64,000 nucleotides of DNA, from contig JARFNK010000004.1 in assembly GCA_029167225.1 (NCBI GenBank), positions 284,229 to 348,228 on the forward strand. Reading direction: 5' to 3'. Shown here in pieces: positions 34,967 to 58,810 of this stretch. The position numbers and the translations under genes were made by a program. Below the pieces are notes generated by a model. That model was not told the DNA's origin and searched no databases. It saw nothing but the letters and a program-made list of their open reading frames with translations. The stretch's first letter is position 1. The number at the start of each line of letters is the position of its first letter. The DNA is from Sphingobium arseniciresistens. GTDB taxonomy: Bacteria > Pseudomonadota > Alphaproteobacteria > Sphingomonadales > Sphingomonadaceae.

Positions 34967-34995
34967 TATTCCCCCTTTGGCCCGACGATGCCGGG

Positions 34996-35736: not shown

Positions 35737-35805
35737 ACCCCCCTCTTTCGTCGAAGCATCTCTCGAAGCCGGAGCGTAAATGAGCGTATCTTGCAGCACA
35801 ACATG

Positions 35806-39237: not shown

Positions 39238-39291
39238 TCTTATACGAAGGTGCGCGGATCAGCGCGCCGCCGCAACAAGGAGCTAAAGCCG

Positions 39292-41574: not shown

Positions 41575-44201
41575 TGCGCCGGGCGTTCCTGCTCCTGCTT
41601 GCCGCTGCGCCTACTGCGCTTCTGGCGGCACCTCGGGAGACGACGGACCTCGCCGCGCATTGGCAATTTCGCCTTGCCCCTGATGAGAAGGACGTAGCAA
41701 CAGCCCATCCCCAGGCGGCGAAGTGGCGCCCCGCGACCGTGCCCGGCTATGTCCAGACCGACCTGATTGCCCAGGGCATCACGCCCGATCCCTTTGCCGG
41801 CCTGAACGAAGCGACGATCCAGTGGGCCGGACGGAGCGACTGGGAGTATCGCGGCCGGATCGACGCCTCACCTGCCCTGCTCGCGCGCCAGCATATCGAC
41901 CTCGTGTTCGACGGGCTCGATACCTACGCGGACGTGCTTGTGAACGGGCAGCCGCTGCTCTCGGCAGACAACGCCCATCGCCGCTGGCGCGCTGACGCCA
42001 AGCCGTTGCTGAAGGTCGGCGCGAACGAGATCCTCATCCGCTTCCGCTCGCCGCTCAAGGCGTTGCAGCCCAAGGTTCTGGCGCTCGCCAATCCGCTGCC
42101 GGGCGAATATGATTCCGTCTTCGGCGATGAGCCCGAAGCACGGCAGACGTCCCCTTATATCCGCAAGCCCAAATATCATTACGGCTGGGATTGGGGGCCG
42201 CGCATTCTCAACATCGGGTCCAATGGCCCCATTCGGATCGATGCCTGGGATAACCTGCGCATCGGGAGCCTGCGGGTCGCGCAGGAGGCGGTGACGAGGG
42301 CGGAAGCCCGGATCGCTGCTGGTGTCGAACTGGTCGCAGACCGTGAAGGTCGCGCCCGCGTGGAAGTGACGGTAAAAGGTCCCCAGAAGGGACAGACCTT
42401 CACTTCCACGCGCGACATCGCCGTGACCGCTGGCATCAATCGCGTCTCCGTGCCCGTCAGCATCCCGGATCCGCAAATCTGGTATCCGGCGGGCTATGGC
42501 GCGCAGCCGCTCTATTCGGTCACGACGAAGGTTTCACTCGATGGCGAGGTCGTTGACAGCACGACCCGCACTACCGGCCTGCGGACGGTCGAACTGGTGC
42601 GGGACGCCGATGCCAAGGGGCGCGGCTTCCAGATCAAGGTCAATGGCCTGCCCATCTTCATGAAGGGCGCCAACGTCATCCCCTTTGACAGCTTCGCGCC
42701 GCGCGTGACGCCGGAACGCATGGCCGGCATCCTCGCCGATGCGAAGGCGGCGAACATGAACATGGTCCGCATCTGGGGCGGCGGGCATTATCTGCCCGAC
42801 AGCTTCTATGATGCCGCCGATCGGCTGGGCCTGATGGTGTGGCAGGATTTCATGTTCGGTGGCGCTGTGCCCCCCTATGACCGCGAATTCCGTGAGAATG
42901 TCCGCATAGAGGCGGAACAACAGGTCGAGCGGGTGCAGGCGCATCCGTCCATCGTGCTGTGGTCGGGCAACAATGAAGTGCTTTCCGGCTGGGAAAACTG
43001 GTCCGATCGCATCGCCTTCAAGAAGCGCGTAGGCGCGGACGAGCAGGAACGTATCGGGGTAGGCATGGCGATCCTGTTCAACCAGGTACTGCGCGACGCG
43101 GCCGAGCGCATCGATTCCGACGTGCCCTACTGGCCCGGCTCCCCCAGCACCAACTATGAAGGCAAGCCCGACGTCGATGGTGACGGCGACCGCCATTATT
43201 GGGATGTCTGGGGCGGGAAGAAGCCCGTGACCGCCTATTTGGAAAGCTGCCCGCGCTTCATGTCCGAATATGGGCTGGAGGCGATGCCGGTCATGCCGAC
43301 CATCAAGGCGTTCGCAAAGGATGGCGACCTCAGCGTCACCTCGCCCGTCATGCGCGCCCATCAGAAGTTCCTGAAGGGCGAGGGACAGGAACGCCTGCTC
43401 TATTATATCGAGCAGCGCTATCGGACGCCGCGCGACTTTGCCGATTTCGTCTATCTCTCCCAGGCGATGCAGGCGGACGGTATCGCGCTCGGCGCGCTCC
43501 ATCATCGCGCCTGCCGCCCGGAAACGACCGGTTCGCTCTACTGGCAGCTCAACGATGTCTGGCCCGGCGCCTCATGGTCCAGCATCGACTATTTCGGCCG
43601 CTGGAAAGCGTTGCACTATGCCGCGCGACGTTTCTTCGCGCCGGTCGCGGTCGCTGCCGGACGGCATGAGAATGGCTCGACGGACGTTTCGCTGATCTCG
43701 GACAGGACAGATGCGGCCGCCGCCCATTGGCGCATCCGCATCGTCGATGTCGATGGCGCGCAGAAGATCGTGAAGGAAGGTGACGTCCAGCTCGCGCCGT
43801 TGTCCGCCATCAAGGTCGCGACGCTGGGTGATGCCGCGCTGTTCGGCGCTGCCGACAAGAGCCGCAGCTTCGCCGTCGCCGAACTGATGATCGACGGCAA
43901 GCTCGCCTCTCGTGCGCTGGTTTCGGCCGTTCCCGAAAAGGACATGGCCCTGCCCGATCCGAGCCTGACGACCCAGTGGAGCACAGCTGCCGATGGCAAG
44001 CCGCAATTGACCGTCAGCGCAGGGAAGATGGCACGCGGCCTGTGGATCGGCTTCGGTGAAATCGACGCCAGCGCCTCCGACAATTATTTCGATCTGCTTC
44101 CCGGCGAGAGCGTGACCGTAACCATCACTTCCAAGGCATCCACGGCCAAATTGCGCGCGGCGCTCGAACTGCGGCACCTCGGCATGGAGGGCAAGCGATG
44201 A
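41574..44201 (+). CDS. Beta-mannosidase (GH2)
   Basis: Splits terminal beta-mannose, such as the core Man-beta-1,4-GlcNAc of N-glycans. The 875-residue protein has a signal peptide (MRRAFLLLLAAAPTALLA), the GH2 jelly-roll (VFDGLDTYADVLVNGQPLLS; KYHYGWDWGPRIL), an Ig-like middle domain and the TIM barrel with MKGANVIPFDSF, MVRIWGGGHYLPDSFYD and GLMVWQDFMFG. The acid/base is Glu468 in VLWSGNNEVLSG and the nucleophile Glu565 in FMSEYGLEAMP. WGGG and WQDFMF are features of beta-mannosidases rather than galactosidases. The ATG overlaps the GH20 stop by one base; a GTG 3 bases upstream is also possible. Confidence 0.93.
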   Translation: MRRAFLLLLAAAPTALLAAPRETTDLAAHWQFRLAPDEKDVATAHPQAAKWRPATVPGYVQTDLIAQGITPDPFAGLNEATIQWAGRSDWEYRGRIDASPALLARQHIDLVFDGLDTYADVLVNGQPLLSADNAHRRWRADAKPLLKVGANEILIRFRSPLKALQPKVLALANPLPGEYDSVFGDEPEARQTSPYIRKPKYHYGWDWGPRILNIGSNGPIRIDAWDNLRIGSLRVAQEAVTRAEARIAAGVELVADREGRARVEVTVKGPQKGQTFTSTRDIAVTAGINRVSVPVSIPDPQIWYPAGYGAQPLYSVTTKVSLDGEVVDSTTRTTGLRTVELVRDADAKGRGFQIKVNGLPIFMKGANVIPFDSFAPRVTPERMAGILADAKAANMNMVRIWGGGHYLPDSFYDAADRLGLMVWQDFMFGGAVPPYDREFRENVRIEAEQQVERVQAHPSIVLWSGNNEVLSGWENWSDRIAFKKRVGADEQERIGVGMAILFNQVLRDAAERIDSDVPYWPGSPSTNYEGKPDVDGDGDRHYWDVWGGKKPVTAYLESCPRFMSEYGLEAMPVMPTIKAFAKDGDLSVTSPVMRAHQKFLKGEGQERLLYYIEQRYRTPRDFADFVYLSQAMQADGIALGALHHRACRPETTGSLYWQLNDVWPGASWSSIDYFGRWKALHYAARRFFAPVAVAAGRHENGSTDVSLISDRTDAAAAHWRIRIVDVDGAQKIVKEGDVQLAPLSAIKVATLGDAALFGAADKSRSFAVAELMIDGKLASRALVSAVPEKDMALPDPSLTTQWSTAADGKPQLTVSAGKMARGLWIGFGEIDASASDNYFDLLPGESVTVTITSKASTAKLRAALELRHLGMEGKR

Positions 44202-46747
44202 GCGCGCTTCTGCTTCTGCTCGCCGCGAGCGCCGGGCAGACTGATCCGCAGATCACGGCCAAGATCAGCGCGATGAGCCCGGCGGAAAAAGCGGCCCAGC
44301 TTCAATCCGGGGCGCCTGCCAACGGCGCTGAGCTGCCCGCCTATGACTATTGGAACGAAGCCCTTCATGGCCTTGCCCGCAACGGCGTCGCCACCGTGTT
44401 TCCCCAAGCGATCGGCCTGGGCGCGACATGGGATCCAGAACTCATGGAGCGGATCGGCACCGTCGTCTCGACCGAGGCCCGTGCCAAATATAACGCCCTG
44501 CCCGGCAAGGATCGCCGCCGCTATCAGGGGCTGACCATCTGGTCGCCGAACATCAACATCTTCCGCGACCCGCGCTGGGGTCGCGGGCAGGAGACCTATG
44601 GCGAAGACCCGCTGCTGACCGGTAGCCTTGCCGTGGGCTATGTGCGCGGGCTGCAAGGGCCGGACCTTACCCAGCCCCGCGTGCTCGCGACGCCCAAGCA
44701 TCTCGTCGCGCACAGCGGGCCTGAGGCCGGGCGCGATTCCTTCGGGGTGCAGAGCAGCGCCTATGACATGGAGACCACCTATCTCCCCGCCTTCCGCAAG
44801 GCGCTGACCGAGGGCAAGGCGCTGTCGGTGATGTGCGCCTATAACAGCGTGCATGGGGTGCCTGTCTGCGCATCCGACTGGCTGCTCAACGATCGCGTGC
44901 GCAAGGATTGGGGCTTCACCGGCCTCATCGTCTCGGATTGCGACGCGATCGGCAACATCAACCATTATCAGCGCTATCGGCAGACCAATGCCGCCGCCTC
45001 GGCCGCCGCGATCAATGCCGGCATGGACCTTAATTGCGGCAAGGCCTATGCCGCCCTCGATCAGGCGCTGGCGCAGGGACTGACCGACCAGAAGACGGTA
45101 GACCGTGCGCTTGAACGCACCTTTGTCGCGCGCAAATTGCTGGGCGACGCCTTTGGTGCGAAAAGCCGCTGGGATGCGATCCCGGCAAGCGCGGTCGATA
45201 CCCCAGCCAACCGGGCACTGGCGCTGGAAGCGGCGCGCAAGTCGCTGGTGCTGCTGCAGAACAATGGCGTTTTGCCGCTCAAGAAGGGCGCCAGGATCGC
45301 GGTGATCGGCCCCAATGCCGACAGCCTCGATACGCTGGAGGCCAATTATCACGGCACGGCGGGCAATCCCGTGACGCCGCTCGCGGGCCTCAGGGGGCGT
45401 TTCGACGTGCGCTACGCACAGGGCGCAACGCTGGCGGAAGGCGTGCCGCTGCCGATCCCCGAAACCGCCTTCGGCACGGGCCTCAAGGCCGAGTTCTTCA
45501 CCGATCCGGGCTTTTCAGGCGCCGCTGCACAGACGCAAACCCACCGGAAGATCGATTTCGACTGGAACCGCACCTCCCCCGCGCCGGGCATTCCGGCGGA
45601 GCGCTATGGCGTGCGCTGGACCGGCACGCTGACGCCAGAGGGACCGGGCGAGCATGTTCTGCGCCTCGACGTGCCCCGCTGCTTTGATTGCAATGGCCAT
45701 GACGCCGTGCGCCTGTGGATCGACGGGCAGCAGGTGATCGCCGACAATGGCGACGGCAGCAAGGTCGAGGCACGCCTGACCTTTGCCGACACCCGCCCTC
45801 ATGACATCCGCGTCGAACTGGCCCATGCCAGCGAGGACGAGGGCATCCGCCTGACGTGGACCGCTCCAGCCGCCGCGCAGCGACAAGCAGCCATCGCGGC
45901 GGCGCGTGACGCGGACGCCGTCGTCGCCTTTGTCGGTCTGTCACCGGCTGTCGAGGGCGAAGCGCTGCAGATCGAGGTGCCCGGCTTCTCCGGCGGCGAC
46001 CGCACCGACATCGCGCTCCCCGAAGCGCAGCAGGCCCTGCTCGAAGCAGTAAAGGCGACAGGCAAGCCGCTGGTCGTCGTGCTGCTCTCCGGCAGTGCCG
46101 TGGCGATGGAGTGGGCCAAGCAGAATGCGGACGCCGTGGTGGCCGCATGGTATCCTGGTGAAGCTGGCGGCACGGCGATCGCCGACCTGATCGACGGCAC
46201 GATCAGCCCGGCGGGACGCCTGCCCGTCACCTTCTACGCCCGCACCCGCGATCTCCCCGCGTTCGTCGATTACAACATGCGCGAGCGGACCTATCGCTAT
46301 TTCCACGGGCAGCCGCTCTGGGGCTTTGGCCATGGCCTTGCCTATACCCGCTTTGCCTATGCCGACGCGAAGGCTCCGGCGAGCGTCACGGCCGGAGACA
46401 CGCTGACGGTCACGGTGCGGATCACCAATGCGGGCAACCGCGATGGCGATGAGGTCGCGCAAGCCTATCTCATCCCGCCCGAAAACCTGCGCCGCATCGG
46501 CGAGTTCAACGATCCTGTGCTGCGGCACAATCTCGTGGCCTTCAGCCGCCTGCCCTTGAAGCGTGGCAAGAGCCAAACGGTGCGTTTCGCCCTCGATCCG
46601 CGGGCGCTCAGCACCGTGGACCGTGATGGCGTGCGCGCGGTGCGTCCCGGCAGCTATCGCCTGTTCATCGGCGGCGGACAGCCCGGCGAGGCGCAGGGCA
46701 CGGAGCTTTCCTTCACCATCACCGGCACGCAGGTTCTGCCCAAATGA
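44198..46747 (+). CDS. GH3 beta-glycosidase with PA14 insert (xylosidase/glucosidase type)
   Basis: An 849-residue family 3 glycosidase. The N-terminal barrel has LHGLARNGVATVFPQAIGLG, FRDPRWGRGQETYGEDP, and ATPKHLVAHSGPEAGRD, and the nucleophile Asp247 in LIVSDCDAIGNI. The alpha/beta domain begins near KSLVLLQNNGVLPL and is interrupted at about 425-560 by a PA14 domain (GLKAEFFTDPGFSG; RLDVPRCFDCNGHD). A fibronectin-III-like domain closes the protein. The SDC nucleophile segment resembles beta-xylosidases of the family; in this locus removal of the plant N-glycan beta-1,2-xylose is a reasonable guess. The leader (MSALLLLLAASAGQ) is short and lacks basic residues. It overlaps its neighbours by 4 bases on both sides (ATGA). 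Confidence 0.88.
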   Translation: MSALLLLLAASAGQTDPQITAKISAMSPAEKAAQLQSGAPANGAELPAYDYWNEALHGLARNGVATVFPQAIGLGATWDPELMERIGTVVSTEARAKYNALPGKDRRRYQGLTIWSPNINIFRDPRWGRGQETYGEDPLLTGSLAVGYVRGLQGPDLTQPRVLATPKHLVAHSGPEAGRDSFGVQSSAYDMETTYLPAFRKALTEGKALSVMCAYNSVHGVPVCASDWLLNDRVRKDWGFTGLIVSDCDAIGNINHYQRYRQTNAAASAAAINAGMDLNCGKAYAALDQALAQGLTDQKTVDRALERTFVARKLLGDAFGAKSRWDAIPASAVDTPANRALALEAARKSLVLLQNNGVLPLKKGARIAVIGPNADSLDTLEANYHGTAGNPVTPLAGLRGRFDVRYAQGATLAEGVPLPIPETAFGTGLKAEFFTDPGFSGAAAQTQTHRKIDFDWNRTSPAPGIPAERYGVRWTGTLTPEGPGEHVLRLDVPRCFDCNGHDAVRLWIDGQQVIADNGDGSKVEARLTFADTRPHDIRVELAHASEDEGIRLTWTAPAAAQRQAAIAAARDADAVVAFVGLSPAVEGEALQIEVPGFSGGDRTDIALPEAQQALLEAVKATGKPLVVVLLSGSAVAMEWAKQNADAVVAAWYPGEAGGTAIADLIDGTISPAGRLPVTFYARTRDLPAFVDYNMRERTYRYFHGQPLWGFGHGLAYTRFAYADAKAPASVTAGDTLTVTVRITNAGNRDGDEVAQAYLIPPENLRRIGEFNDPVLRHNLVAFSRLPLKRGKSQTVRFALDPRALSTVDRDGVRAVRPGSYRLFIGGGQPGEAQGTELSFTITGTQVLPK

Positions 46748-48183
46748 TCATCGATCGCCGTTCCATGATCGCCGGCAGCTTCGCCCTTGCTGCCACACCT
46801 GCCATTGCCCGCGCAGCCCCTCGCATTGCCGGTTTTGATAGCAAGCGTCCGGCGACGGCCGACCGCAAATTCGTCAGCCGCGCCGTGGAGCGGGAAATCG
46901 GCCGGGTATCGGCCCTTATCGGCGACCCTGAACTGCGCTGGATGTTTGCGAACTGCTACCCCAACACGCTGGACACGACGGTGTTCATGGGCAACATCGA
47001 AGGCAAGCCGGACGCCTTCGTAATCACCGGCGACATCGAATGCCTTTGGCTGCGCGACAGCTCCGCCCAGCTCAATCCCTATGTCCACCTTGCCCGCGAA
47101 GACGCCAAGCTGCGCGAACTTTTCCGCGGGCTGATCGCCCGGCAGGCGCGATCGATCCTGCTTGATCCCTATGCCAATGCGTTCATGCACGATCCTTCGG
47201 CAAAGACGACGCTGCCATGGGCGCTGGCCGACGATACCGAAATGAAGCCGGGCGTGGCCGAGCGGAAGTGGGAGGTGGATTCGCTCTGCTACCCGATGCG
47301 CCTTGCCCATGATTACTGGCGCGCGAGCGGCGACGCGACGCCGTTCGATGCGCTGTGGGTGGATGCCGCACGGGCGAGCATCCGCACCTTCCGCGAGCAG
47401 CAGCGCAAGGACGGCCCCGGCCCCTATCGCTTCCTGCGGCGCGACAAGCTGGCGACCGAGACCCAGATCCTGAACGGCTATGGCGCGCCCACCCGCAAGG
47501 TCGGCATGATCCATTCCATGTATCGCCCCTCCGACGATGCCTGCCTGTTTCCCTTCCTGGTCCCCGCCAACCTCTTTGCCGTCGCCGCTCTGCGCAAGCT
47601 CGCGGTGGTGGCGAGCGAGGCGGCGAAAAACACTGCGCTCGCGGCGGGCGCCAAGGCGCTGGCCGATGAGGTCGATGCCGCCACCCGCGCGAACGGTACG
47701 ATGATCGATACGGCGACCGGAGAGCGGCTCTGGGCCTATGAGGTCGACGGCTTCGGCAACGGCCATTTCATGGACGATGCCAACGTGCCCAGCCTCTCCG
47801 CGCTGACCTATCTCGGCTGCGTACAGCCCGACGATCCCCTGTTCCAGCGCACGCTCTCCGCGGCATGGAGCGAGCGTAACCCCTATTTCTTCAAGGGCAC
47901 GTCGGCCGAAGGCATTGGCGGCCCCCATGCCGGCCTGCGGATGATCTGGCCGATGTCGATCATCATGCGCGCCATGAACAGCCACGACGATGCCACCATC
48001 CGCCAGTGCCTGCGCTGGCTCAAGGCCAGCCATGCCGGCACGGGCTTCATCCATGAAGCCTTCGATCAGGATGATCCCAAGACCTTCACCCGGCACTGGT
48101 TCGCATGGGCCAACGGTCTGTTCGGCGAGCTGATGCTGGACCTTGCCCGCCGCAAGCCCGACCTTCTGGGAGAAACATTGTGA
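46744..48183 (+). CDS. Exo-alpha-1,6-mannosidase-type protein (GH125)
   Basis: A 479-residue (alpha/alpha)6-barrel glycosidase of family 125, which trims alpha-1,6-linked mannose without metal. Supporting segments are WMFANCYPNTLDTTVFM, AFVITGDIECLWLRDSSAQL (catalytic-site region), WALADDTEMKPGVAERKWEV, GMIHSMYRPSDDACLFPFLV, and GHFMDDANVPSLSALTYLG; the end TGFIHEAFDQDDP is also typical. The leader has a twin-arginine pattern (DRRSMIAGS followed by a hydrophobic stretch), so export may be by Tat. Its ATG overlaps the GH3 stop and its stop overlaps the next GTG, both by 4 bases. It probably works with GH92 on high-mannose or paucimannose arms. Confidence 0.92.
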   Translation: MIIDRRSMIAGSFALAATPAIARAAPRIAGFDSKRPATADRKFVSRAVEREIGRVSALIGDPELRWMFANCYPNTLDTTVFMGNIEGKPDAFVITGDIECLWLRDSSAQLNPYVHLAREDAKLRELFRGLIARQARSILLDPYANAFMHDPSAKTTLPWALADDTEMKPGVAERKWEVDSLCYPMRLAHDYWRASGDATPFDALWVDAARASIRTFREQQRKDGPGPYRFLRRDKLATETQILNGYGAPTRKVGMIHSMYRPSDDACLFPFLVPANLFAVAALRKLAVVASEAAKNTALAAGAKALADEVDAATRANGTMIDTATGERLWAYEVDGFGNGHFMDDANVPSLSALTYLGCVQPDDPLFQRTLSAAWSERNPYFFKGTSAEGIGGPHAGLRMIWPMSIIMRAMNSHDDATIRQCLRWLKASHAGTGFIHEAFDQDDPKTFTRHWFAWANGLFGELMLDLARRKPDLLGETL

Positions 48184-50498
48184 GCCGCCCGACCTTCGAT
48201 CGCCGCACGCTGCTGACGGGCACGGGCGGTATCGCGCTCGCCAGCGCCTTTTCCGCGCATGGCACTGCATATGGCGCGACAAGGGCGACTACGGCTGCGC
48301 CGGACCTGTTCGTCGGCACGGGTGGCGATGGCCACACTTTTCCCGGCGCGACCATGCCCTTCGGGATGGTCCAGCTATCTCCCGATACCGATACGGCACG
48401 CTGGGCGACCTGTTCGGGCTATCAAAAGGATGACGGCTCGATCCTAGGCTTCTCCCACACCCATCTTTCCGGCACCGGCATTGGCGACATGCTGGATGTG
48501 CTGGTCGTGCCGACGACCGGTCCGGTTCAGTTGCAGCCCGGCCCGCTCGACAATCCCGACGTCGGCTATCGCCAGCGCTACAACGCGGAACAGGCAGAGC
48601 CCGGCTATTATGCCGTCAATCTGGAAAGCGGCGTTCGCGCGGAGCTGACCGTCACGGAACGCACCGGCATCCACCGCTATCATTTCCCCGCCGGCGCCGG
48701 CCATCTGCTGATTGACCTCAGCCATCTCGTGATGGAAGGCCCCGGCGAAGCGCCGCTGATCGACGAAGCGGCGATCACTATGGAGAGCGACGGCACTCTC
48801 ACCGGGACGCGGCGGGTCTTCCGCTGGGCCAAGGGGCGGCGGATCTTCTTCGCGATCCAGCTTTCCCGCGCGCCCGACCGCATCGCTTTTTTCGGCGATG
48901 AGGATCAGCCAGCCTCGGGCAACAGCATTACCGGCAAGCGGCTGAAGGCGGCACTGCATTATGACGACGCCGGCGCCGCGCCGGTGGTCGTCCGCTGCGG
49001 CATTTCGGCAGTGGACGTTGCCGGTGCCCGCGCGAACCTGAAGGCCGAAGCGCGTCACTGGAATTTCGATCGCTATCGCGCCGCCGCCCAGCAGGCATGG
49101 GCCAAGGAACTGGACCTCGTCGCAGTCGAAGGCGGCACGCCAGAACAGCGCACGATCCTCTCCTCGGCGCTCTATCATGCCAGCATGGGGCCGACGCTCT
49201 ATTCGGATGTCGACGGGCGCTATGTCGGGCTGGATCGCAAGGTCCACACCGCCCCTGCCGATGCTCGCGCCTTCAGCGCCTATTCGCTGTGGGACACCTA
49301 TCGCGCCTTCCATCCGCTCCAGACCCTGCTCCGCCCGCACCGCGCGGCCGAATTCGTCGCGGACCTCATCCGCCAGACCCAGCAGAGCCCCTTCGGCCCG
49401 CCCGTCTGGCCGCTGCAAGGCGTGGAAACAGGGTGCATGATCGGCTGGCATGCGGTGCCGGTGCTTGCCGAAGCCCGCGCCAAGGGCATTCCGGGCGATT
49501 ATGCGGCGGCATGGCCCGGTATCGCCAAGCGTTCCTTCGACTGGTCCACGCCCAATCTGGACAATAGCCTGGGCATCCAGACCTATGACGAATTGGGTTT
49601 CGTGCCGGCGGATCGCATCTTCGAAAGCGTCTCGCGCACGCTTGAATATAGCTATGACGATTATGCCTCCGCCCATATCGCCGACGCGGCGGGGGAAAGC
49701 GCGAGCGCGCAGCGCCTGCGCAAGCGCTCGGGCAACTGGCGCAACGTGTTCGACCGGAGGATCGGTCACGCGCGCGGTCGGCTGGCCGACGGCAACTGGG
49801 CGGAACCCTATGACCCGATTGCGCTCGGCCATTCCAAGAAGTGGCGCGATTTCACCGAGAGCAATGGCTGGCAGGCGACCTTCCTGAACCAGCATGACGT
49901 AAATGGCCTGATGGCGGCCATGGGCGGCGATGCTGCGTTCGAGGCGAAGCTGGACGCGCTGTTCACAGCGCCGTCCACCCTCCCCGCAGACGCGCCGCCG
50001 GACATTTCCGGGCTGGTCGGCCAATATGCCCATGGCAATGAGCCGAGCCACCATGTCGCCTATCTCTATGCCTATTGCGGGGCGGCATGGAAGACGCAGG
50101 CCATGGTTCGCCGGTTGATGAGCGAGATGTACAAGGACACGCCCGATGGCGTCATCGGCAACGATGATTGCGGCCAGATGAGCGCGTGGTTCATCCTCTC
50201 CGCGCTGGGCTTCTACCCGGTCGATCCGGTGAGTGCGACCTATGTGCTGGGCAGCCCGCTGTTCGAGCGCGCGGAAGTGCGCCTCGACAGGGGCAAGCGC
50301 CTGATCGTGGAAGCGCGGGGGAACAGGCCCGACACGCCCTATGTGCAGGCGGTGAGCTGGAACGGGCGGCCATGGACGAAGGGCTGGATCGCCCATGCCG
50401 ACCTTATCCAGGGCGGCACGTTGCGGTTCGAGATGGGCACGACGCCCAACAAGGCCTTTGCCAGCCGGCCAGAGGATCGGCCGGTCTCCAGGGCATGA
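48180..50498 (+). CDS. Calcium-dependent alpha-mannosidase (GH92)
   Basis: A 772-residue family 92 enzyme that removes alpha-1,2/1,3/1,4/1,6-mannose by inversion, with calcium. Motifs in order: FVGTGGDGHTFPGATMPFGM, GFSHTHLSGTGIGDM, LSSALYHASMGPTLYSDVDG, YSLWDTYRAFHPLQTLL, MIGWHAVPVLAEARAKGI, EPSHHVAYLYAY and DGVIGNDDCGQMSAWF. These are full-length family features. The GTG start at 48180 overlaps the GH125 stop by 4 bases (GTGA). The N-terminus has a twin-arginine pattern (FDRRTLLTG) and hydrophobic stretch ending SAHGTAYGA, so a Tat-exported periplasmic enzyme is likely. Confidence 0.93.
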   Translation: MSRPTFDRRTLLTGTGGIALASAFSAHGTAYGATRATTAAPDLFVGTGGDGHTFPGATMPFGMVQLSPDTDTARWATCSGYQKDDGSILGFSHTHLSGTGIGDMLDVLVVPTTGPVQLQPGPLDNPDVGYRQRYNAEQAEPGYYAVNLESGVRAELTVTERTGIHRYHFPAGAGHLLIDLSHLVMEGPGEAPLIDEAAITMESDGTLTGTRRVFRWAKGRRIFFAIQLSRAPDRIAFFGDEDQPASGNSITGKRLKAALHYDDAGAAPVVVRCGISAVDVAGARANLKAEARHWNFDRYRAAAQQAWAKELDLVAVEGGTPEQRTILSSALYHASMGPTLYSDVDGRYVGLDRKVHTAPADARAFSAYSLWDTYRAFHPLQTLLRPHRAAEFVADLIRQTQQSPFGPPVWPLQGVETGCMIGWHAVPVLAEARAKGIPGDYAAAWPGIAKRSFDWSTPNLDNSLGIQTYDELGFVPADRIFESVSRTLEYSYDDYASAHIADAAGESASAQRLRKRSGNWRNVFDRRIGHARGRLADGNWAEPYDPIALGHSKKWRDFTESNGWQATFLNQHDVNGLMAAMGGDAAFEAKLDALFTAPSTLPADAPPDISGLVGQYAHGNEPSHHVAYLYAYCGAAWKTQAMVRRLMSEMYKDTPDGVIGNDDCGQMSAWFILSALGFYPVDPVSATYVLGSPLFERAEVRLDRGKRLIVEARGNRPDTPYVQAVSWNGRPWTKGWIAHADLIQGGTLRFEMGTTPNKAFASRPEDRPVSRA

Positions 50499-52798
50499 CA
50501 GGCGTGGCAGCGCTGGCGCTGCTCGCGGCGGCGGCCTCTGCCGCGACGCCGGCAGCACCGGCCGATTTCGCACTGGACAGAGTTTGCGTGGCCGCAGCCG
50601 GATCGGCCGCTCCGGCTGCAGAGCTGTTGCGGCGCCGGCTCGTGGAGCGCGGGGCGCGGGAGGCGGGTTGCAGCAACCATATCCGCTTCCTCGCCCAGCC
50701 GCGGATCGCGCGGGAAGGCTTTGCGATCAGCCGACAGGGCAGGACCGTCACGGTGCGCGCAGCCTCGACTCGCGGCTTCGTCTACGGGGCCGGCTGGCTG
50801 CTGCGCCATAGCGACAGGCTCAGCCTGACAATGCCAGCGCGTGTCGCCGAAGCACCTGCCCTGAAAATTCGTGGGACGCAGATCGGCTACCGTTTCAAGA
50901 ACAACAGCTATGACGCCTGGACCCCGGCGATGCTCAGCCGGCGGATCGAGGATCTCGCGCTCTGGGGCGCCAATCGCATTCAGATCGTCGCGCCGAAATC
51001 GGACGATGCGTCAGCCTCCCCGCTTTCCCCCGTCCCGGCCGAACAGGCTGTTCGGGAGATGGCCGGCGCTGCCCACAGGCTGGGTCTGGACGTGGCGCTC
51101 TTCTATCCCCTGCTCGGCGACTATGACGGCGGCGCAGCGGACGATGCAGAGGTGAAGGCCTTTGCTACGCTGGTCGAAAGCCTGCCCGCACTCGACGCGC
51201 TGTATCTGCCCGGCGGCGACCCCGGCCACACTCCGCCTGACCGGCTCTTCGGCCTTGCGTACCGGCTCGCAACGACCATGCGCAACCGCTTTCCCAAGGC
51301 GGAGCTGCTGATTTCGACGCAGGGCTTCGACGCAAAGGGGCTGGATGCTTTCTACGCGCAACTCGCCCGGCGCCCCGACTGGCTGAGCGGTATCTTCATC
51401 GGCCCGCAGACACGCGAAAGCGTCGCGATCCATCGGCGCCGCATCGCCGGTCGCTATCCGCTCGAACTCTATCCCGACACCGCCCATGCCATGCATGCGC
51501 AGCTTCCTGTGCCCGACTGGCATCCCGCCTTCGCCCTGACCGAAGGGCGCGAGCCGGTGAACCCTCGACCGCAGGCGCAGGCGACGACCTTCGCGCATCT
51601 CTCCCCCGGCACGCGCGGCGCGATCAGCTATTCCGAAGGCATCAACGACGACTGGAATGTCCACCAATGGCTGTCCATGGGCTGGAACGCCGATGTCGAT
51701 CCCCGCGCCGTCGCCACCGACTATGCCAATTTCTATGTCGGCGATCCCGCCTTTGCCGTGATCCCCGCGATGCTCGAAGAGAATTGGCGCGGTGATCCAT
51801 CGGGCAATGCGGGCATCGACGCCACGATGAGCGCCATCGACAGTGTGAAGCCCGCCTCATGGGCGGACTGGCATCTCGCTCTCTACCGCTACCGGGCCGT
51901 CTATGATGCGCTGGTGCGCGAGCGGCTGGGGCTGGCAAAAGCGCGGCAGGCCGAGGCGCTCTATACACTGCGCCAAGCCTCAGGGATGGGCGCGGAGCCC
52001 GCCGTCGCGGCCGCGCGCTTCGCCTATGCCCGTCCCGAAAGCGACAAGGCGCAGGCGCTCCTCGAACGCCTTGAAGGCTTGGCGCAGCGACTCTGGCTTT
52101 CCGCCCATATGCAGCTTTCCGTCCCGCGATATGGCGCGTCCCACTGGGAGCGCGGTGCAAATCTGGATCGCGCGACCATAGACCTGAACGATCGTGTCGC
52201 CGTGGAACGGGATATGGCGGCCGCGCTTGCACTCCCGACGGAGAAGGCGCGGACCGATCGCCTTGTCGCGCTGGGGGATCGCTGGGGCATGGCGCAGTTC
52301 GCGCTCTACGACGATTTGGGCGATCCGACCAACGAGCCGCATCTGGTGCGCGGCCCCGGCTACCCGGACGATCCCCAACTGTGGCGCGCCGCAATAGACG
52401 GCGTCGCCGATCATATCCCGAACGAGGGCTGGCGCATGGCGGAACTGAGCTATGCCGAGGCGCTCTACGAACATCCGCTGACGCTGCGCTATGACGGGCT
52501 GGAGCATCAGCGGCGCTATCGTCTGCGCTACACATGGGCAGGCGAGGACTATGTGCTGCCACTGACGCTCACCGCTAATGGCACGCCTCTGCCCGCGCCA
52601 GAGCAGCGCAGCAGCAATCCCCAGACGGTGGAACTCGACATTCCGCCCGCACTCACCGGCAACGGCGCGCTGACGCTCGTCTGGGCGCGGCCCGCCGGCG
52701 TTGGCGGCGGCGGACGGGGGCGACAGATTGCCGAAGTCTGGCTGATCCCCCTGCCCCTCGATATCAAAACGACAGAAACAGCCGGAGCCGATCAATGA
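50495..52798 (+). CDS. Unclassified glycoside-hydrolase-like protein (GH20/GH67-like layout)
   Basis: I cannot place this 767-residue protein in a named family. It opens with a signal-like hydrophobic stretch (about 1-20, no basic residue). Residues about 35-115 look like the alpha/beta domain found before the barrel in GH20, GH67 and GH84 enzymes (AAELLRRRLVERGAREAG ... STRGFVYGAGWLLRH). A TIM-barrel-like part follows: IRGTQIGYRFKNNSYDAW (125-142), VALFYPLLGDY (200-210), LYLPGGDPGHTPP (236-248), LLISTQGFDAKGLD, TRGAISYSEGINDDWN (373-388) and WLSMGWNADVDP (392-403). The end is probably a beta-sandwich. Glu381 and Asp242 are candidate active-site residues. It lies between GH92 and GH29 with 4-base overlaps on both sides, so a glycan-cleaving role is likely by context. 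Confidence 0.7.
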   Translation: MTGVAALALLAAAASAATPAAPADFALDRVCVAAAGSAAPAAELLRRRLVERGAREAGCSNHIRFLAQPRIAREGFAISRQGRTVTVRAASTRGFVYGAGWLLRHSDRLSLTMPARVAEAPALKIRGTQIGYRFKNNSYDAWTPAMLSRRIEDLALWGANRIQIVAPKSDDASASPLSPVPAEQAVREMAGAAHRLGLDVALFYPLLGDYDGGAADDAEVKAFATLVESLPALDALYLPGGDPGHTPPDRLFGLAYRLATTMRNRFPKAELLISTQGFDAKGLDAFYAQLARRPDWLSGIFIGPQTRESVAIHRRRIAGRYPLELYPDTAHAMHAQLPVPDWHPAFALTEGREPVNPRPQAQATTFAHLSPGTRGAISYSEGINDDWNVHQWLSMGWNADVDPRAVATDYANFYVGDPAFAVIPAMLEENWRGDPSGNAGIDATMSAIDSVKPASWADWHLALYRYRAVYDALVRERLGLAKARQAEALYTLRQASGMGAEPAVAAARFAYARPESDKAQALLERLEGLAQRLWLSAHMQLSVPRYGASHWERGANLDRATIDLNDRVAVERDMAAALALPTEKARTDRLVALGDRWGMAQFALYDDLGDPTNEPHLVRGPGYPDDPQLWRAAIDGVADHIPNEGWRMAELSYAEALYEHPLTLRYDGLEHQRRYRLRYTWAGEDYVLPLTLTANGTPLPAPEQRSSNPQTVELDIPPALTGNGALTLVWARPAGVGGGGRGRQIAEVWLIPLPLDIKTTETAGADQ

Positions 52799-54699
52799 CG
52801 ACCCACCTGACCCGCCGATCCCTGATGGCAGGTTCGCTCCTGGCTAGCGCGGCGGCCTGCGCCCCTCGCGGCCCCGCTGCCATCGCCCAGCCCCGCCTGC
52901 CCGCGCCATGGGGTGCCACGCCCTCGCCACGCCAGCGCAAATGGCATGATCGGCGGATGTACGGCTTCATCCACTTCTCGATGAACACCTTCACCGACAA
53001 GGAATGGGGCTATGGCGACGAAGACCCGGCCCTGTTCAACCCCAGCGATTTCGATCCCGACCAGATCGTCGCCGGGGCCAAGGCTGGCGGCCTGACGGGC
53101 CTGATCCTCACCGCCAAGCATCATGACGGCTTCTGCCTGTGGCCCACGATGCTGACCGAACATTGCATCCGCAATGCGCCCTACAAGAATGGCATGGGCG
53201 ACATCGTCGGCGAAATGGAGCAGGCGTGCCGACGCGGCGGTATCGATTTCGGCGTCTATCTCTCGCCATGGGATCGCAACCGCGCTGATTATGGCAAGTC
53301 TTCCTATGTCGAATATTTCCGCGCCCAGTTGAGCGAACTGTGCACCCGCTACGGCACGCTCTTCGAAGTCTGGTTCGATGGCGCCAACGGCGGCGACGGT
53401 TATTATGGCGGCGCGCGAGAAGCGCGGAAGATCGATGCGCCCGCCTATTACAACTGGCCCTCGATCATCGCGCTCGTCCACAAGCTGCAGCCCGATGCGT
53501 GCACCTTCGATCCGCTGGGCGCAGACATCCGCTGGGTCGGCAATGAGGATGGCCATGCCGGCGACCCCTGCTGGCCGACAATGCCGAACGAACCCTATGA
53601 CCAGGAAAAGGGCAATAGCGGCGTGCGCGGCGCCGAACTTTGGTGGCCGGCGGAGACCAATGTCTCGATCCGTCCGGGCTGGTTCTATCACGCCGACGAG
53701 GATGTGCAGGTCAAGACGCCGCAGAAGCTGATGGAGCTGTTCGACCAGTCGGTGGCGCGCGGCACGACCTTCCACCTGAACCTGCCGCCCGACAAGCGCG
53801 GGCAACTCGCGCCCCGCGATGTCGCCAGCCTGCAGGCATTCGGAGATGCGCTGCACGCGACCTTTGCCGAGGATCTGGCACGCGGCGCCTTGGCGAGCGC
53901 CAGCGCCGATATCGGCAGCACGGCGGCCCACGCCGTTGACGGCAATCTCGACAGCTTCTGGTGCGCGCCCGCAGGCGCCAAGGACGCGACTCTGACGCTG
54001 GACCTTCAGCCGGGCCGCAGCTTCGATACCATCCGCTTGCAGGAATGGCTGCCGCTGGGCCTGCGCGTCACGCGCTTCGCGATCGATATTTCGGACGGCG
54101 GCGACCAGTGGCAGGAAATCGCGAGCAAGGAGATGATCGGGCCGCAGCGGATCATCCGCCTGCCCCAGCCCATCAGCCCGCGCCGGATCCGCTTCCGCTC
54201 GGTCGAGGCCGAAGCGGGGCCGACGCTGCGCGAATTCGCCCTGTTCCGGTCGGTCGCTCCGGCCGTGCTCCCGCCGGCCCGGGCCTCCGATCCCAGCATC
54301 GTCGCGCGCGACAAGTGGAAGGTCGTTACCGCCAGCGCTCCGGGGAGCGAAGCCGTGCTGGACGATGACGCCAAGACCGCATGGCTCTCGCCCGCGCCAG
54401 CCGCCATCACGATCGATCTGGGCGAAGCGGAACGGCTTGCCGGCTTCACCCTGACGCCTACGCGCCATGTCGATCCGCAATCAGCGCCGCCTGCACGTTA
54501 TCGCGTCGAAACCAGCATCGACGGCAAGAGCTGGACGAAAGCGGAAGAGGGCGAGTTCCAGAACATCAACTATGCCCGCGCGACCCAGCGCATAGCGTTC
54601 AGCGCGGCGCGCAATGTCCGCTATCTGCGCCTCGCTTTCCCGCGCCCGGCAGTGCCGGCACCGGCGATCGCCGTCGCGACGATCGGCGCCTTCCGCTGA
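52795..54699 (+). CDS. Alpha-L-fucosidase (GH29) with C-terminal discoidin-like domains
   Basis: A 634-residue fucosidase. The GH29 barrel (about 45-360) has RRMYGFIHFSMNTFTDKEWG, LILTAKHHDGFCLWPT, FGVYLSPWDRNRADYG, and the nucleophile Asp195 in EVWFDGANGGDG. EVWFDGANG is typical of the alpha-1,3/1,4-fucosidase subfamily. Two F5/8-type C (CBM32-like) domains follow (about 365-490 with AVDGNLDSFWCAP, and about 500-634 with DDDAKTAWLSPAP). The leader has a twin-arginine pattern (LTRRSLMAG) and a Cys at about 22 in ASAAACAP, so a Tat-exported lipoprotein is possible. It is the last gene of the chain and faces the GH2 beta-galactosidase gene. Confidence 0.93.
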   Translation: MTTHLTRRSLMAGSLLASAAACAPRGPAAIAQPRLPAPWGATPSPRQRKWHDRRMYGFIHFSMNTFTDKEWGYGDEDPALFNPSDFDPDQIVAGAKAGGLTGLILTAKHHDGFCLWPTMLTEHCIRNAPYKNGMGDIVGEMEQACRRGGIDFGVYLSPWDRNRADYGKSSYVEYFRAQLSELCTRYGTLFEVWFDGANGGDGYYGGAREARKIDAPAYYNWPSIIALVHKLQPDACTFDPLGADIRWVGNEDGHAGDPCWPTMPNEPYDQEKGNSGVRGAELWWPAETNVSIRPGWFYHADEDVQVKTPQKLMELFDQSVARGTTFHLNLPPDKRGQLAPRDVASLQAFGDALHATFAEDLARGALASASADIGSTAAHAVDGNLDSFWCAPAGAKDATLTLDLQPGRSFDTIRLQEWLPLGLRVTRFAIDISDGGDQWQEIASKEMIGPQRIIRLPQPISPRRIRFRSVEAEAGPTLREFALFRSVAPAVLPPARASDPSIVARDKWKVVTASAPGSEAVLDDDAKTAWLSPAPAAITIDLGEAERLAGFTLTPTRHVDPQSAPPARYRVETSIDGKSWTKAEEGEFQNINYARATQRIAFSAARNVRYLRLAFPRPAVPAPAIAVATIGAFR

Positions 54700-54750: not shown

Positions 54751-57648
54751 TCACCGCCGGTCGATCAATTTGACCGAGCCGGTTATTCCCGACGGCGTGT
54801 TCGGTACGGACTGCACCAGCAGCGCGACTTCTTTCGCGCCAGGCGGCACCAATGCCTCCAGCGATCCCGCAGCCGGCGTCGCTTTCGTCGCAACGCGCGC
54901 GCCATCGATCCAGAGTTCCGCCTTGCCGGAAATGGCGGCAAAGGCGATCCCGCCGCCCTGCGCGACAATGCGCCGCCGCACCGGCAGCGCCGCGCGGTAA
55001 ACCCGCCATGTCGCCGTGGCATCGGCCTCCGTCGCCGTGCCGCTGCGGGTAAAGGCCCAGAGGTTGTTGTCGCCTTCTGCCGGTCTGATGGCCGGGTCGG
55101 GGCGCTCGGCAAAGCCCGGAGACCGCCGCCAGTCAGCGATCATCGCAACGCTTGGCTGAACGGGCACCGACGGTCTCGCCACCGCGTTCAGCAAAGGCAG
55201 CATGATCCGCGCTGGCCGCAAGCCCTCAGCCTGCGCCTCCACAACGATACGCCCGCGCCCTTCCGGCACCTGAATGATGAGCTGGGCAAGGCCGTTGAAA
55301 AGGGAGCGCTCGGGCGTCTTCTCGCTCTCATGGCTGTTAGGGTCGCCATTGCCGACGCCGATCAGCGTCGCCCCCGACAGAGTGAAGCTGACCTTTCTCC
55401 CTTCGGTCGGCACATGATTACCCTGTGCATCGACGGTATCGACAGTGATCGCCAGCACATCCTCGCCGTCGCCCAGCATCGCCTTGCGCGTCGGCGTCAG
55501 CCGCAGCCCGACCGCAGGTCCGGCTGTGCGGTGGGTCGTGCGCGCAACCACCCGCCCGCCTTTCAGTGCCTCCACCTCCAGCACCCCGGGGGCGTATTTC
55601 GCGCGGAAATGATTGCCCATCACCCGGTCACAGACCTGTTCGCCGATCGGCCGACCGTTCACCAGCACCCGCACCTTGTCGGCGTTCGAGGTCACGAGCA
55701 GGTCGATCTCCTGCCCTTCCCGCCCCGGCCAGGTCCAGTGCGGTGCGACGCCGACCACGATCTCATCGTCGATCCACTGTGCCCGGCGGATATCATAGGC
55801 GGTCTTGGCAAAACCGCAGAGGTCGAGAATGCCGAAGAAGCTGGCGATCGTCGGCCAGGCATAGGGCGTTGGCTCGCCATGATAGTCAAAGCCCGTCCAG
55901 ACGAACCCGCCCGCGACGAAGGGCCGCTGCGCGATCGCCTGCCAGGACTTGCGATGCGTCGCGCCCCAGTCCGCCGCTTCCTCATCCATGGAGGAGATGA
56001 CATGCGCCTTGGGATCGCTGGCATAGGCGCCGCGCGTCATATAGGCGCTAGTGTCTTCCGAACTGGTGGTCGGCTTGGCCGGATTGAGCGCGTGGAAGCG
56101 GTCATAATCATTGGGGTAATAGTTGAACCCCATGACATCGACGACCTGCGAGACATTGTGCGGCACATAGAAGGAGCCGTTCATCGCCGCCGTCACCGGC
56201 CGGCTGTCGTCCAGCGCCCGCACCGCCGCACGCATCCGCCGCACCATTTCCACGCCGGACTGCGTGCCCTGCATCGGCTCTTCGTTGAAGACCGACCACA
56301 GGATGATGCTGGGATGGTTGCGATGCGCCCGCACCAGCCATTCCAGCTGCGCCAGATTTTCCGGCGCCGGATTGAAGATCCGGTTCTCGTCCATGACCAG
56401 GAAGCCCATGCGGTCGCACTGGTCATAGAACTCCGCCGTCATCGCATTGTGCGAACAGCGGATGGCGTTGCATCCCATGTCCTTCAGCCGCTGAAGCCTC
56501 CAGGCGAGGAGCGCATCGGGCACCGCGACGCCAACCCCGGCATGGTCCTGATGCAGGCATACGCCCTTGAGTTTGACCGGCTGGCCATTGAGCAGGAAGC
56601 CGCGGTCGGGATCGAAGGCGATGCTGCGGAAACCAACCGGGACATGGCGCCGATCTTCACCCTGCGCACCCGAAACCGTCACCTCGACATTGTAGAGCGT
56701 GGGGTTTCCGACCGACCAGAGCCTTGGCGCGCCGACGTCCAGTGTCATCCGGCCGAGCGCCTGTGAGAGCGGTTCGACCTCCGTCTGGATCGATTGCGTC
56801 GCCACGGCGCGTCCTTCGGGATCGCGCAAGGTCGCGCTGATCGTGACGGCTTCGCGCGCTGCCGCAATGCTTTCCAACGACACGGAGACGGGCACCTGCC
56901 ATCGGCCATCGGCAAGGCGCGGGTCGCAATGCACGCCGTCCGTCTCGATCGACACCGGTGCCCGGCGCGCAAGCCAGACGTGGCGGTAAATGCCGGCGCC
57001 CTCGTACCACCAGCCTTCCATCGCGTTCGCATCGACACGCACGGCAATCACATTCAAATCATCGCCGAACCGCGCGAACGGCGTGATGTCGATGGTGACG
57101 GCGTTATAGGCGGAAAAGTTGCGCGCCACGATGCTGCCATTGATCCAGATCGTCGCCTGCGTGGCGATGCCGCCGAACTGCAGTTCCAGCCGCTTGCCCT
57201 GATCGGCCGGATCGAGCCGCATCGTCCGCCGATACCAGCCGATGCCGCGCGGTCGGTAGCCCTGCGACACATTGGCGGTCTCGACAAAGGGCTGGGCAGA
57301 CGCCCAGTCATGCGGCAGGGATACCGCCTGCCAATCGCTGTCGTCGAAATCGATCGCCGCCGCGCCGCGCGCATTGCCCGCCTTTACCGACAAATAGGTC
57401 TGGTGATGGCCTTCCGGCGGGGCAAGCGCGATATCCCCTTCACGGAACAGCCACCCCCTATCGAGCAACAGCCGAGACGGGTCGGGCTGGCCCGGTGCCA
57501 GCGGCGCTGCGTCTCGGGTTGCAAGGCCATGAAGTTGCGGCGTATCACCTGTTTCTGCGGATTTCGCAGATCCGGACGCCGGGATCAGACCCGCCAGTCC
57601 CGCCACCGCACCGCTCGCAAGGGCATCCCGCCGGCTGAAACCGCTCAT
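54751..57648 (-). CDS. Beta-galactosidase-type glycosidase (GH2)
   Basis: A 965-residue GH2 enzyme expected to remove terminal beta-galactose. The leader MSGFSRRDALASGAVAGLAG has the twin-arginine pattern. The sugar-binding jelly-roll has VSLPHDWASAQPF, GYRPRGIGWYRRTMRL and GWWYEGAGIYRHVWL; the barrel has LKGVCLHQDHAGVGVA, NAIRCSHNAMTAEFYDQCD and LVMDENRIFNP. Acid/base Glu456 lies in SVFNEEPMQG and the likely nucleophile Glu531 in TSSEDTSAYMTRGAY; FVAGGFVWTGFDYHGEPTPY is typical of beta-galactosidases. Further C-terminal beta domains follow. The start at 57646-57648 overlaps the cutC stop by 4 bases. It is convergent with the GH29 gene. Confidence 0.88.
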   Translation of the reverse strand: MSGFSRRDALASGAVAGLAGLIPASGSAKSAETGDTPQLHGLATRDAAPLAPGQPDPSRLLLDRGWLFREGDIALAPPEGHHQTYLSVKAGNARGAAAIDFDDSDWQAVSLPHDWASAQPFVETANVSQGYRPRGIGWYRRTMRLDPADQGKRLELQFGGIATQATIWINGSIVARNFSAYNAVTIDITPFARFGDDLNVIAVRVDANAMEGWWYEGAGIYRHVWLARRAPVSIETDGVHCDPRLADGRWQVPVSVSLESIAAAREAVTISATLRDPEGRAVATQSIQTEVEPLSQALGRMTLDVGAPRLWSVGNPTLYNVEVTVSGAQGEDRRHVPVGFRSIAFDPDRGFLLNGQPVKLKGVCLHQDHAGVGVAVPDALLAWRLQRLKDMGCNAIRCSHNAMTAEFYDQCDRMGFLVMDENRIFNPAPENLAQLEWLVRAHRNHPSIILWSVFNEEPMQGTQSGVEMVRRMRAAVRALDDSRPVTAAMNGSFYVPHNVSQVVDVMGFNYYPNDYDRFHALNPAKPTTSSEDTSAYMTRGAYASDPKAHVISSMDEEAADWGATHRKSWQAIAQRPFVAGGFVWTGFDYHGEPTPYAWPTIASFFGILDLCGFAKTAYDIRRAQWIDDEIVVGVAPHWTWPGREGQEIDLLVTSNADKVRVLVNGRPIGEQVCDRVMGNHFRAKYAPGVLEVEALKGGRVVARTTHRTAGPAVGLRLTPTRKAMLGDGEDVLAITVDTVDAQGNHVPTEGRKVSFTLSGATLIGVGNGDPNSHESEKTPERSLFNGLAQLIIQVPEGRGRIVVEAQAEGLRPARIMLPLLNAVARPSVPVQPSVAMIADWRRSPGFAERPDPAIRPAEGDNNLWAFTRSGTATEADATATWRVYRAALPVRRRIVAQGGGIAFAAISGKAELWIDGARVATKATPAAGSLEALVPPGAKEVALLVQSVPNTPSGITGSVKLIDRR

Positions 57649-58388: not shown

Positions 58389-58810
58389 GTGAATCCTTCA
58401 ATCGCGATCGGTGGCGCCAGGAAATGGAGATGAAGCGAAAGGGCTCGACGGTCGAACCATGCAGCGCATAACGTTCTCGATCGATGGCCTGCATCGCCTG
58501 GTGGGAGGTGTGCGGCTACGCTATTACTCCGACAACAATTTGCCAAGACAGATAAAAGTCCCTGCCGCCCTCGCCTGCGCCTTTGATCGAACGGGCAATG
58601 GCAGCGGACGGAACATGAAGCCGAAATATGAGGATTGACCACCCGGCCTCATCCGACAATAGAGCAAGGCCATCCTTCCGGGGAACGTGCCTGCAAAGGC
58701 ATATGATCTGACTGTCCTGCCTGCACACTAGGCGGCGCGGATCCGAGGCAACCGGCAGCGACCTGACTTGATTGCACATTATCGCACAATGCCAATTACG
58801 AAGGATTTCC
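58389..58810. other. Intergenic stretch between cutC and the ROK kinase, no supported gene
   Basis: This 422-base gap is divergent and should hold promoters for the cutC operon and the sugar-kinase gene. Short frames here have no recognisable domain. The only feature noted is TTGCACATTATCGCACAA near 58772-58789, a weak near-palindrome upstream of the kinase start. No clear TTGGTAT half-site was found. Confidence 0.35.

What the first reader, a model, noticed from the sequence alone, without database searches (positions are those of the whole stretch)
50495..52798. Unclassified 767-residue glycosidase-like enzyme inside an N-glycan locus
Seen: a leader, a pre-barrel alpha/beta domain, a barrel-like region with IRGTQIGYRFKNNSYDAW, LPGGDPGHTPP and SYSEGINDDWN, and a likely beta-sandwich end, in a chain of glycosidase genes with 4-base overlaps on both sides. 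Known: GH20, GH67, GH84 and GH163 (DUF4838) share the pre-barrel domain. Inference: it is a glycan hydrolase whose specificity is missing from the rest of the locus. The locus has enzymes for fucose, galactose, GlcNAc, and alpha- and beta-mannose, but none recognised for cutting the chitobiose core (no GH18, GH85 or PNGase seen), so core cleavage is one candidate role. I recall similar motif sets in uncharacterised proteins of other phyla but cannot name a family.
Basis: partly seen in the sequence, partly recalled or inferred. Interest (0 to 1): 0.82.

Follow-up and report, generated by a model that had tools for sequence, protein, structure and literature searches.

The report
Unclassified glycosidase in N-glycan operon
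A bacterial operon for digesting plant-type N-glycans carries a conserved enzyme that fits no family in the libraries searched and probably cuts the sugar core next to the protein, a step for which no usual enzyme was recognised there; the role is inferred, not tested.

Summary
In detail: window 50495-52798 (+) encodes an intact 767-residue protein with 4-base overlaps on both sides, under purifying selection. No Pfam, NCBIfam or PDB sequence model covers it; only its N-terminal domain matches, weakly, the pre-barrel domain of GH20/GH84/GH67/GH138. A partial-confidence AlphaFold model gives that domain plus a (beta/alpha) barrel; best folds are GH84, GH138 and GH20. The barrel alone is not recognisable by sequence. 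The operon is a rearranged Xanthomonas nix cluster (TonB, GH20, GH2, GH3, GH125, GH92, this gene, GH29) lacking the chitinase-like NixF assigned to the GlcNAc-GlcNAc bond. In six sphingomonad genomes the gene lies between GH92 and GH29; relatives (41-52%) sit on Asticcacaulis, Granulicella and Sphingomonas plasmids, the last as an orphan. No GH85 was found in the six genomes; the window genome's only GH18 hit is a deacetylase/glycosyltransferase fusion. Best reading (0.4): a new glycosidase family that replaces NixF at the chitobiose core, probably alpha1,3-fucosylated. The adjacent acidic pair of GH20/GH84 is absent; D242 (end of strand 4) and E381 (last strand) are invariant in eight aligned members. 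CAZy could not be searched and nothing is tested. New variant of a known kind.

The parts
50495..52798 (+). the unclassified glycosidase-like gene, 767 aa
50570..50809 (+). residues 26-105: alpha/beta pre-barrel domain (GH20b-like)
   Evidence: Pfam GH20b E 0.0014, below its cut-off; hhalign of residues 24-117 of the family to GH20, E 9.2e-7; block pLDDT 79-92
50852..51694 (+). residues about 120-400: (beta/alpha) barrel
   Evidence: AlphaFold secondary structure and Foldseek matches to GH84/GH138/GH20; residues 121-142, 168-179 and 327-398 have pLDDT under 50
51218..51220 (+). codon of Asp242 (PGGDPG, end of strand 4), candidate catalytic residue
   Evidence: invariant in 8 of 8 aligned members; position from the model
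51635..51637 (+). codon of Glu381 (SYSEG, last barrel strand by eye; the model is poor there), candidate catalytic residue
   Evidence: invariant in 8 of 8 aligned members
52427..52750 (+). residues 645-752: C-terminal beta-rich (sandwich-like) domain
   Evidence: secondary structure of the full model, mixed confidence
36314..39076 (+). TonB-dependent receptor
39250..41574 (+). GH20 beta-N-acetylhexosaminidase (NixG-like)
41499..44201 (+). GH2, beta-mannosidase type (NixH-like)
44198..46747 (+). GH3, beta-xylosidase type (NixI-like)
   Evidence: best NCBIfam model is a beta-xylosidase, 722 bits, under its cut-off of 1250
46744..48183 (+). GH125 alpha-mannosidase (NixJ-like)
48105..50498 (+). 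GH92 alpha-mannosidase (NixK-like)
52795..54699 (+). GH29 alpha-L-fucosidase with F5/8 type C domains (NixE-like)
54751..58053 (-). GH2, beta-galactosidase type, convergent with the operon
28496..35799 (-). GlcNAc-type uptake and catabolism genes: PTS EIIBC, EI-HPr-EIIA fusion, NagA-type amidohydrolase, SIS protein, GntR regulator
58772..59707 (+). ROK-family kinase

Best explanation
An exported glycoside hydrolase of a family not in the libraries searched: a GH20b-type alpha/beta domain, a (beta/alpha) barrel, a helical region and a beta-rich end, in the same structural superfamily as GH20, GH84 and GH138. In this nix-type operon it most likely cleaves the chitobiose core of plant N-glycans (GlcNAc-beta1,4-GlcNAc, probably still carrying core alpha1,3-fucose), i.e. 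the step assigned in Xanthomonas to the chitinase-like NixF; the products feed the GH29, the GH20 and the neighbouring GlcNAc genes. D242 at the end of strand 4 and E381 on the last strand are the best candidates for the catalytic acids. Shown: gene, operon, conservation, relatives, domain type. Inferred: export, substrate, endo action, order of steps, catalytic residues.
For: Gene set and order match the Xanthomonas nix cluster, rearranged: nixE fucosidase, nixF, nixG hexosaminidase, nixH beta-mannosidase, nixI, nixJ, nixK; GH families of NixI, NixJ and NixK are recalled from the Dupoiron 2015 abstract. NixF (COG3858, GO 0004568) is assigned the bond between the two GlcNAc and has no counterpart among the operon genes scanned. 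GH85: 0 of 6 carrier genomes, control rings. GH18: 2 of 6; the one domain-scanned is a GH18-deacetylase-GT2 fusion. The gene lies between GH92 and GH29 in 6 of 6 whole sphingomonad genomes and in Asticcacaulis, and between a GH29 and a GH20 in Granulicella. A GH20 is present in the window operon, so a plain exo-GlcNAcase is already supplied. Foldseek: GH84, GH138, GH20.
Against: The paired acidic residues of GH20 (Asp-Glu) and GH84 (Asp-Asp) at the end of strand 4 (recalled) are not there: GGD is followed by P. The barrel alone matches neither GH84 nor GH20 by sequence (E 0.07 and 0.2). The model is weak where much of the active site lies. Granulicella's GH29 and GH20 neighbours are only 27% and 23% identical to the window's. 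Two related clusters lack the gene locally: S. parapaucimobilis, where the gene is an orphan on another plasmid, and the Novosphingobium RL4 plasmid, which does not carry it and shows no GH18 in the 10 downstream ORFs scanned. GH84 and PNGase F-type searches (0 of 6 each) had no ringing control; PNGase A-type and glycosylasparaginase were not searched. No activity data.
Confidence: 0.4

Rival explanations
1. It is an exo-acting beta-N-acetylglucosaminidase, on antennae or on the trimmed chitobiose, overlapping with or specialised relative to the GH20.
For: GH20 and GH84, largely exo-beta-hexosaminidase families (recalled), are among the closest folds, and the pre-barrel domain matches GH20 best.
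Against: A GH20 lies in the same operon here and beside the gene in Granulicella; the GH20/GH84 acidic pair is missing. In Asticcacaulis no GH20 is annotated in the stretch, only a GH84, so there the argument is weaker.
Confidence: 0.2
2. It cuts a different linkage, for example a plant-specific decoration or an acidic sugar, as GH138 does on rhamnogalacturonan II.
For: GH138 chains rank 2, 3 and 5 in Foldseek with the cropped model, BPa0997 is the top PDB profile hit (E 0.0057) and an alpha-galacturonidase model is the only NCBIfam hit (best E 4e-4, 6 of 8 members). The sequence matches lie in the pre-barrel domain and the first barrel strand.
Against: Conserved placement among N-glycan enzymes. 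GH138 is not among the 50 listed matches of the full-length model.
Confidence: 0.25
3. It is a sugar-binding or inactive relative that helps the GH29 or GH92.
For: The strand-4 acidic pair of GH20/GH84 is lost.
Against: Many polar barrel residues (for example D242, H245, D328, E353, E381, D385, D386) are invariant in 8 of 8 aligned members across two phyla.
Confidence: 0.07

Closest known systems
GH84 (O-GlcNAcase, PF07555)
   Same: Pre-barrel domain plus barrel; Foldseek rank 1 with the cropped model (2j62, E 4e-11); profile alignment over residues 68-239, E 2e-5
   Different: No PF07555 match; one acidic residue instead of Asp-Asp at the end of strand 4; without the N-terminal domain the similarity is not significant
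GH20 (PF02838 + PF00728)
   Same: Pre-barrel domain (E 9e-7); GGD at the end of strand 4 resembles the GH20 GGDE motif (motif recalled)
   Different: No PF00728 match; Pro follows the Asp
GH138 (BPa0997, enzyme targeting rhamnogalacturonan II)
   Same: Fold ranks 2, 3 and 5; top PDB profile hit over profile positions 36-127
   Different: Sequence match limited to about 90 residues; different locus context
Xanthomonas NixF (COG3858, chitinase-like)
   Same: Missing member of an otherwise similar gene set; assigned to the GlcNAc-GlcNAc bond
   Different: No GH18 domain in this protein; 767 aa against about 350 codons for nixF by its coordinates. The two were not compared by sequence
GH163 (DUF4838)
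   Different: Only 1 of 8 members matches, E 0.17

Membership tests
GH84 | PF07555 catalytic domain | tested here: not met
   no match at E<=1
GH84 | adjacent Asp-Asp at the end of strand 4 (role recalled) | tested here: not met
   PGGDPG; the profile alignment ends at YLP/YVA just before; GH84 reads YVALDD there
GH20 | PF00728 catalytic domain | tested here: not met
   no match at E<=1
GH20 | PF02838 pre-barrel domain | tested here: inconclusive
   19.8 bits against a cut-off of 26.1; hhalign of the domain E 9e-7
GH20 | adjacent Asp-Glu at the end of strand 4 (role recalled) | tested here: not met
   Asp242 is followed by Pro243 in the 8 aligned members
GH138 | full-length match to the NCBIfam alpha-galacturonidase model NF049878 (equated with GH138 from recall) | tested here: not met
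   18.5 bits against a cut-off of 1300, residues 66-132 only
GH163 | DUF4838 (PF16126) | tested here: not met
   1 of 8 members, E 0.17
GH67 | PF03648 N-terminus and a GH67 catalytic domain | tested here: not met
   PF03648 only, 2 of 8 members, best E 3.5e-4
GH18 / GH85 endo-beta-N-acetylglucosaminidase | PF00704 or PF03644 | tested here: not met
   no match at E<=1
endo-beta-N-acetylglucosaminidase by activity | hydrolysis of the chitobiose core | not testable with these tools
   needs an enzyme assay
CAZy families without a Pfam or NCBIfam model | match to a CAZy/dbCAN model | not testable with these tools

The most novel reading that the evidence does not exclude
A new glycoside hydrolase family of endo-beta-N-acetylglucosaminidases specific for core alpha1,3-fucosylated plant N-glycans, built on the GH20/GH84 scaffold but with a different catalytic pair (D242 and a residue on another strand, possibly E381), which has replaced the chitinase-like NixF in sphingomonads, an Asticcacaulis and an acidobacterium.
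Probability: 0.25. Interest if true: 0.75.

Novelty: new variant of a known kind. Interest (0 to 1): 0.5.

Why it matters
[quoted passage not shown] An endo-enzyme for plant-type cores would fill that gap, could be a tool for removing plant-type glycans from proteins, and would show how one fold family changed its catalytic pair. The cluster gives a direct test: one gene, one bond.

Tried and rejected
GH163 (DUF4838), GH67 and GH89 (NAGLU_N, E 0.074 in 1 of 8) were considered and rejected. Partial matches were dropped from the carrier count: G235 (L008; its ORFs, read by eye, are other genes), G509 (L007; looks like a GH20 by eye, not family-scanned), and G487, G171, G343, G346, G845 and G956 (18.5-22.6 bits over 59-119 profile positions, not looked at one by one). 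The viral collection gave no relative (24 and 109 pattern stretches). The barrel-only profile match to GH29 (E 0.001 over 61 columns) was read: a strand-3 to strand-4 similarity, the best of eight families tried, not used. The first structure model (mean pLDDT 53) was superseded by a cropped one (64.6). The repeats look like chance two-copy matches. A wider test of GH125 clusters with and without the gene failed for want of cases: GH125 was found in 1 of 200 genomes of a phylum draw, the window's own. Papers: PMC5700972, PMC6718126, PMC5958218, PMC9522356, PMC10154615, PMC10154630, PMC7190819 and PMC11180146 were seen as passages only; Dupoiron 2015 was not held (its abstract is recalled). PMC7190819 compares its fucose-specific endo-enzyme with GH18 proteins. 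The listings of paper searches showed no title naming this family; this is not proof that it is unpublished.

Full report
What is there. Window 50495-52798 (+) encodes 767 residues, in an operon-like run with 4-base overlaps to GH92 upstream and GH29 downstream. Codon composition matches its neighbours. NG86 dN/dS to four sphingomonad orthologues is 0.20-0.25, against 0.18-0.21 for GH92 and 0.14-0.23 for GH29 in the same loci; against Asticcacaulis the three values are 0.44, 0.34 and 0.45. It is a real gene.

Surroundings. In order: TonB receptor, GH20, GH2 (beta-mannosidase type), GH3 (beta-xylosidase type), GH125, GH92, this gene, GH29, then a convergent GH2 of beta-galactosidase type; on the other side, on the minus strand, GlcNAc-type uptake and catabolism genes. 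The two '+' ORFs after GH29 match no family and are antisense to the GH2 gene. This is the Xanthomonas nix set rearranged. There the order is nixE (alpha-L-fucosidase), nixF, nixG (beta-hexosaminidase), nixH (beta-mannosidase), nixI, nixJ, nixK (alpha-mannosidase), nixL (beta-galactosidase), with a TonB receptor nixD (PMC6718126 table passage). NixF is COG3858 with GO term 0004568 (chitinase activity, meaning recalled) and signal peptide 1-21, and is assigned the bond between the two GlcNAc (PMC5700972 passages). The window operon has no gene of that kind among those scanned. The GH3 gene, by analogy with NixI (beta-1,2-xylosidase, recalled from the Dupoiron abstract; paper not held), points to plant-type glycans.

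Relatives. Of 150 genomes chosen as relatives, 5 match, the window's own included. In a phylum draw of 398, searches report 4 and 6 genomes, of which 2 (own and G476) match over full length. In a family draw of 397, 4 are reported and the same 2 are full length. In a class draw of 289 only the own genome matches. These searches scored only a few candidates per genome, so absences are soft. Plasmids gave 3 more: Sphingomonas parapaucimobilis 52%, Asticcacaulis 44%, Granulicella 41%, and no further ones with the Granulicella or Asticcacaulis protein as query. So the family looks rare but spans two phyla.

Synteny. In 6 of 6 whole sphingomonad genomes with the gene (window; G047 as L009, G009 as L010, G020 as L011, G068 as L030, G476 as L031) it lies between GH92 and GH29. 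In Asticcacaulis it follows GH2, GH3, a beta-galactosidase, GH125 and GH92 and is convergent with a GH29, with a GH84 further on. In Granulicella it lies between a divergent GH29 and a GH20, which are only 27% and 23% identical to the window's. In S. parapaucimobilis it is an orphan on one plasmid, beside a 75-residue TonB-receptor-like stretch, while another plasmid of the same strain has GH2-GH3-GH125-GH92-GH29 without it. So 8 of 9 carriers have a GH29 next door. A Novosphingobium RL4 plasmid has GH20, GH2, GH3, GH125 and GH29 in a row; the plasmid does not carry this gene, and 10 downstream ORFs scanned hold no GH18 (9, 1). Its chromosome was not searched. This weakens the argument that the step must be encoded in the cluster.

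Is core cleavage otherwise missing? GH85: 0 of 6 carrier genomes, and a control rings. GH18: 2 of 6. In the window's genome the hit is a GH18-deacetylase-glycosyltransferase fusion, which looks biosynthetic; the one in G068 has a frame of similar length (1149 against 1166 aa) but was not domain-scanned. GH84 and PNGase F-type: 0 of 6 each, but no control rang, so these do not show absence.

Family. Pfam: GH20b at E 0.0014, below its cut-off, and two weaker hits; over 8 members GH20b in 6, GH67N in 2, NAGLU_N in 1, DUF4838 in 1 at E 0.17. NCBIfam: an alpha-galacturonidase model over residues 66-132. PDB by sequence: none with the single protein at E<=1; with the profile of 8 members the best is BPa0997 (GH138), E 0.0057, over the pre-barrel domain. 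Profile-profile against alignments made here: GH20 (9 sequences) E 9.8e-6, GH84 (9 sequences) E 2.2e-5, GH29 0.0033, five other families of the operon 0.24-0.77; eight reversed controls 0.058-0.54. Split by domain, the N-terminal domain carries the signal (GH20 9.2e-7, GH84 3.8e-4). The barrel alone gives 0.07 for GH84 in an alignment that falls outside the GH84 barrel (raw score 22.3 against a maximum of 21.8 in 40 shuffles), 0.2 for GH20 and 0.001 for GH29 over 61 columns. So barrel kinship to GH84 or GH20 is not shown by sequence.

Structure. Only window and the search for related loci sequences were used, so the alignments have 4 rows. The full-length model has mean pLDDT 53; its top Foldseek matches are GH20 chains, with GH84 among the first 50. 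The cropped model (residues 24-545) has 64.6 and pTM 0.60: pre-barrel domain at block means 79-92, strands 2 to 6 at about 69-91, but residues 121-142, 168-179 and 327-398 below 50. Foldseek on it: rank 1 GH84 (2j62, E 4e-11, TM 0.48 by query length), ranks 2, 3 and 5 GH138, then further GH84, GH20 and GH138 chains. The rmsd is large (about 7-19 A in the 50 rows listed), so these are local matches. A glycosidase-type barrel is supported; active-site geometry is not.

Catalysis. Strand 4 ends in LYLPGGDPG. The GH84 profile alignment ends by pairing YLP with YVA, just before the GH84 Asp-Asp (YVALDD); read on by position, D242 falls on the second Asp and a Gly on the first. Read against the GH20 GGDE motif (recalled), D242 falls on the Asp and Pro on the Glu. 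Either way one of the two acids is missing, so a simple GH20/GH84 mechanism cannot be assumed. E381 on the last strand (by eye), D328 after strand 7 and E353 are invariant in 8 of 8 and could supply the partner. This is inference.

Reading. A new glycosidase family in the GH20/GH84/GH138-like superfamily, in a plant-type N-glycan operon that lacks the chitinase-like NixF. Because a GH20 is present in the same cluster here and beside the gene in Granulicella, core cleavage rather than plain exo-hexosaminidase action is the better guess. The recurring GH29 neighbour suggests a substrate near the core fucose. Confidence 0.4 for the role; about 0.85 for a glycosidase of this superfamily.

Noticed in passing
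L016:1-20025: In S. parapaucimobilis plasmid unnamed8 the orphan relative lies beside a type I-E CRISPR locus in which DISARM genes (drmD, a DNA methyltransferase, drmA, a DUF1998 gene) sit between cas3 and casA.
   Followed up: no
window 28496-34966: A GlcNAc-type PTS (EIIBC and an EI-HPr-EIIA fusion) with NagA-type and SIS genes lies next to the N-glycan operon of this sphingomonad.
   Followed up: no
window 54709-58392: Two long '+' ORFs without any family are antisense to a 1100-aa GH2 gene on '-'.
   Followed up: yes
L028 (G000 contig C44): The GH18 domain hit of the window's genome is part of a GH18-polysaccharide deacetylase-GT2 fusion.
   Followed up: partly
L033:390-15285: A Novosphingobium RL4 plasmid carries a nix-like cluster without GH92 and without the gene studied here.
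   Followed up: partly
L038:1941-5860: A third S. parapaucimobilis plasmid carries a GH84 gene convergent with a GH20 gene.
   Followed up: no
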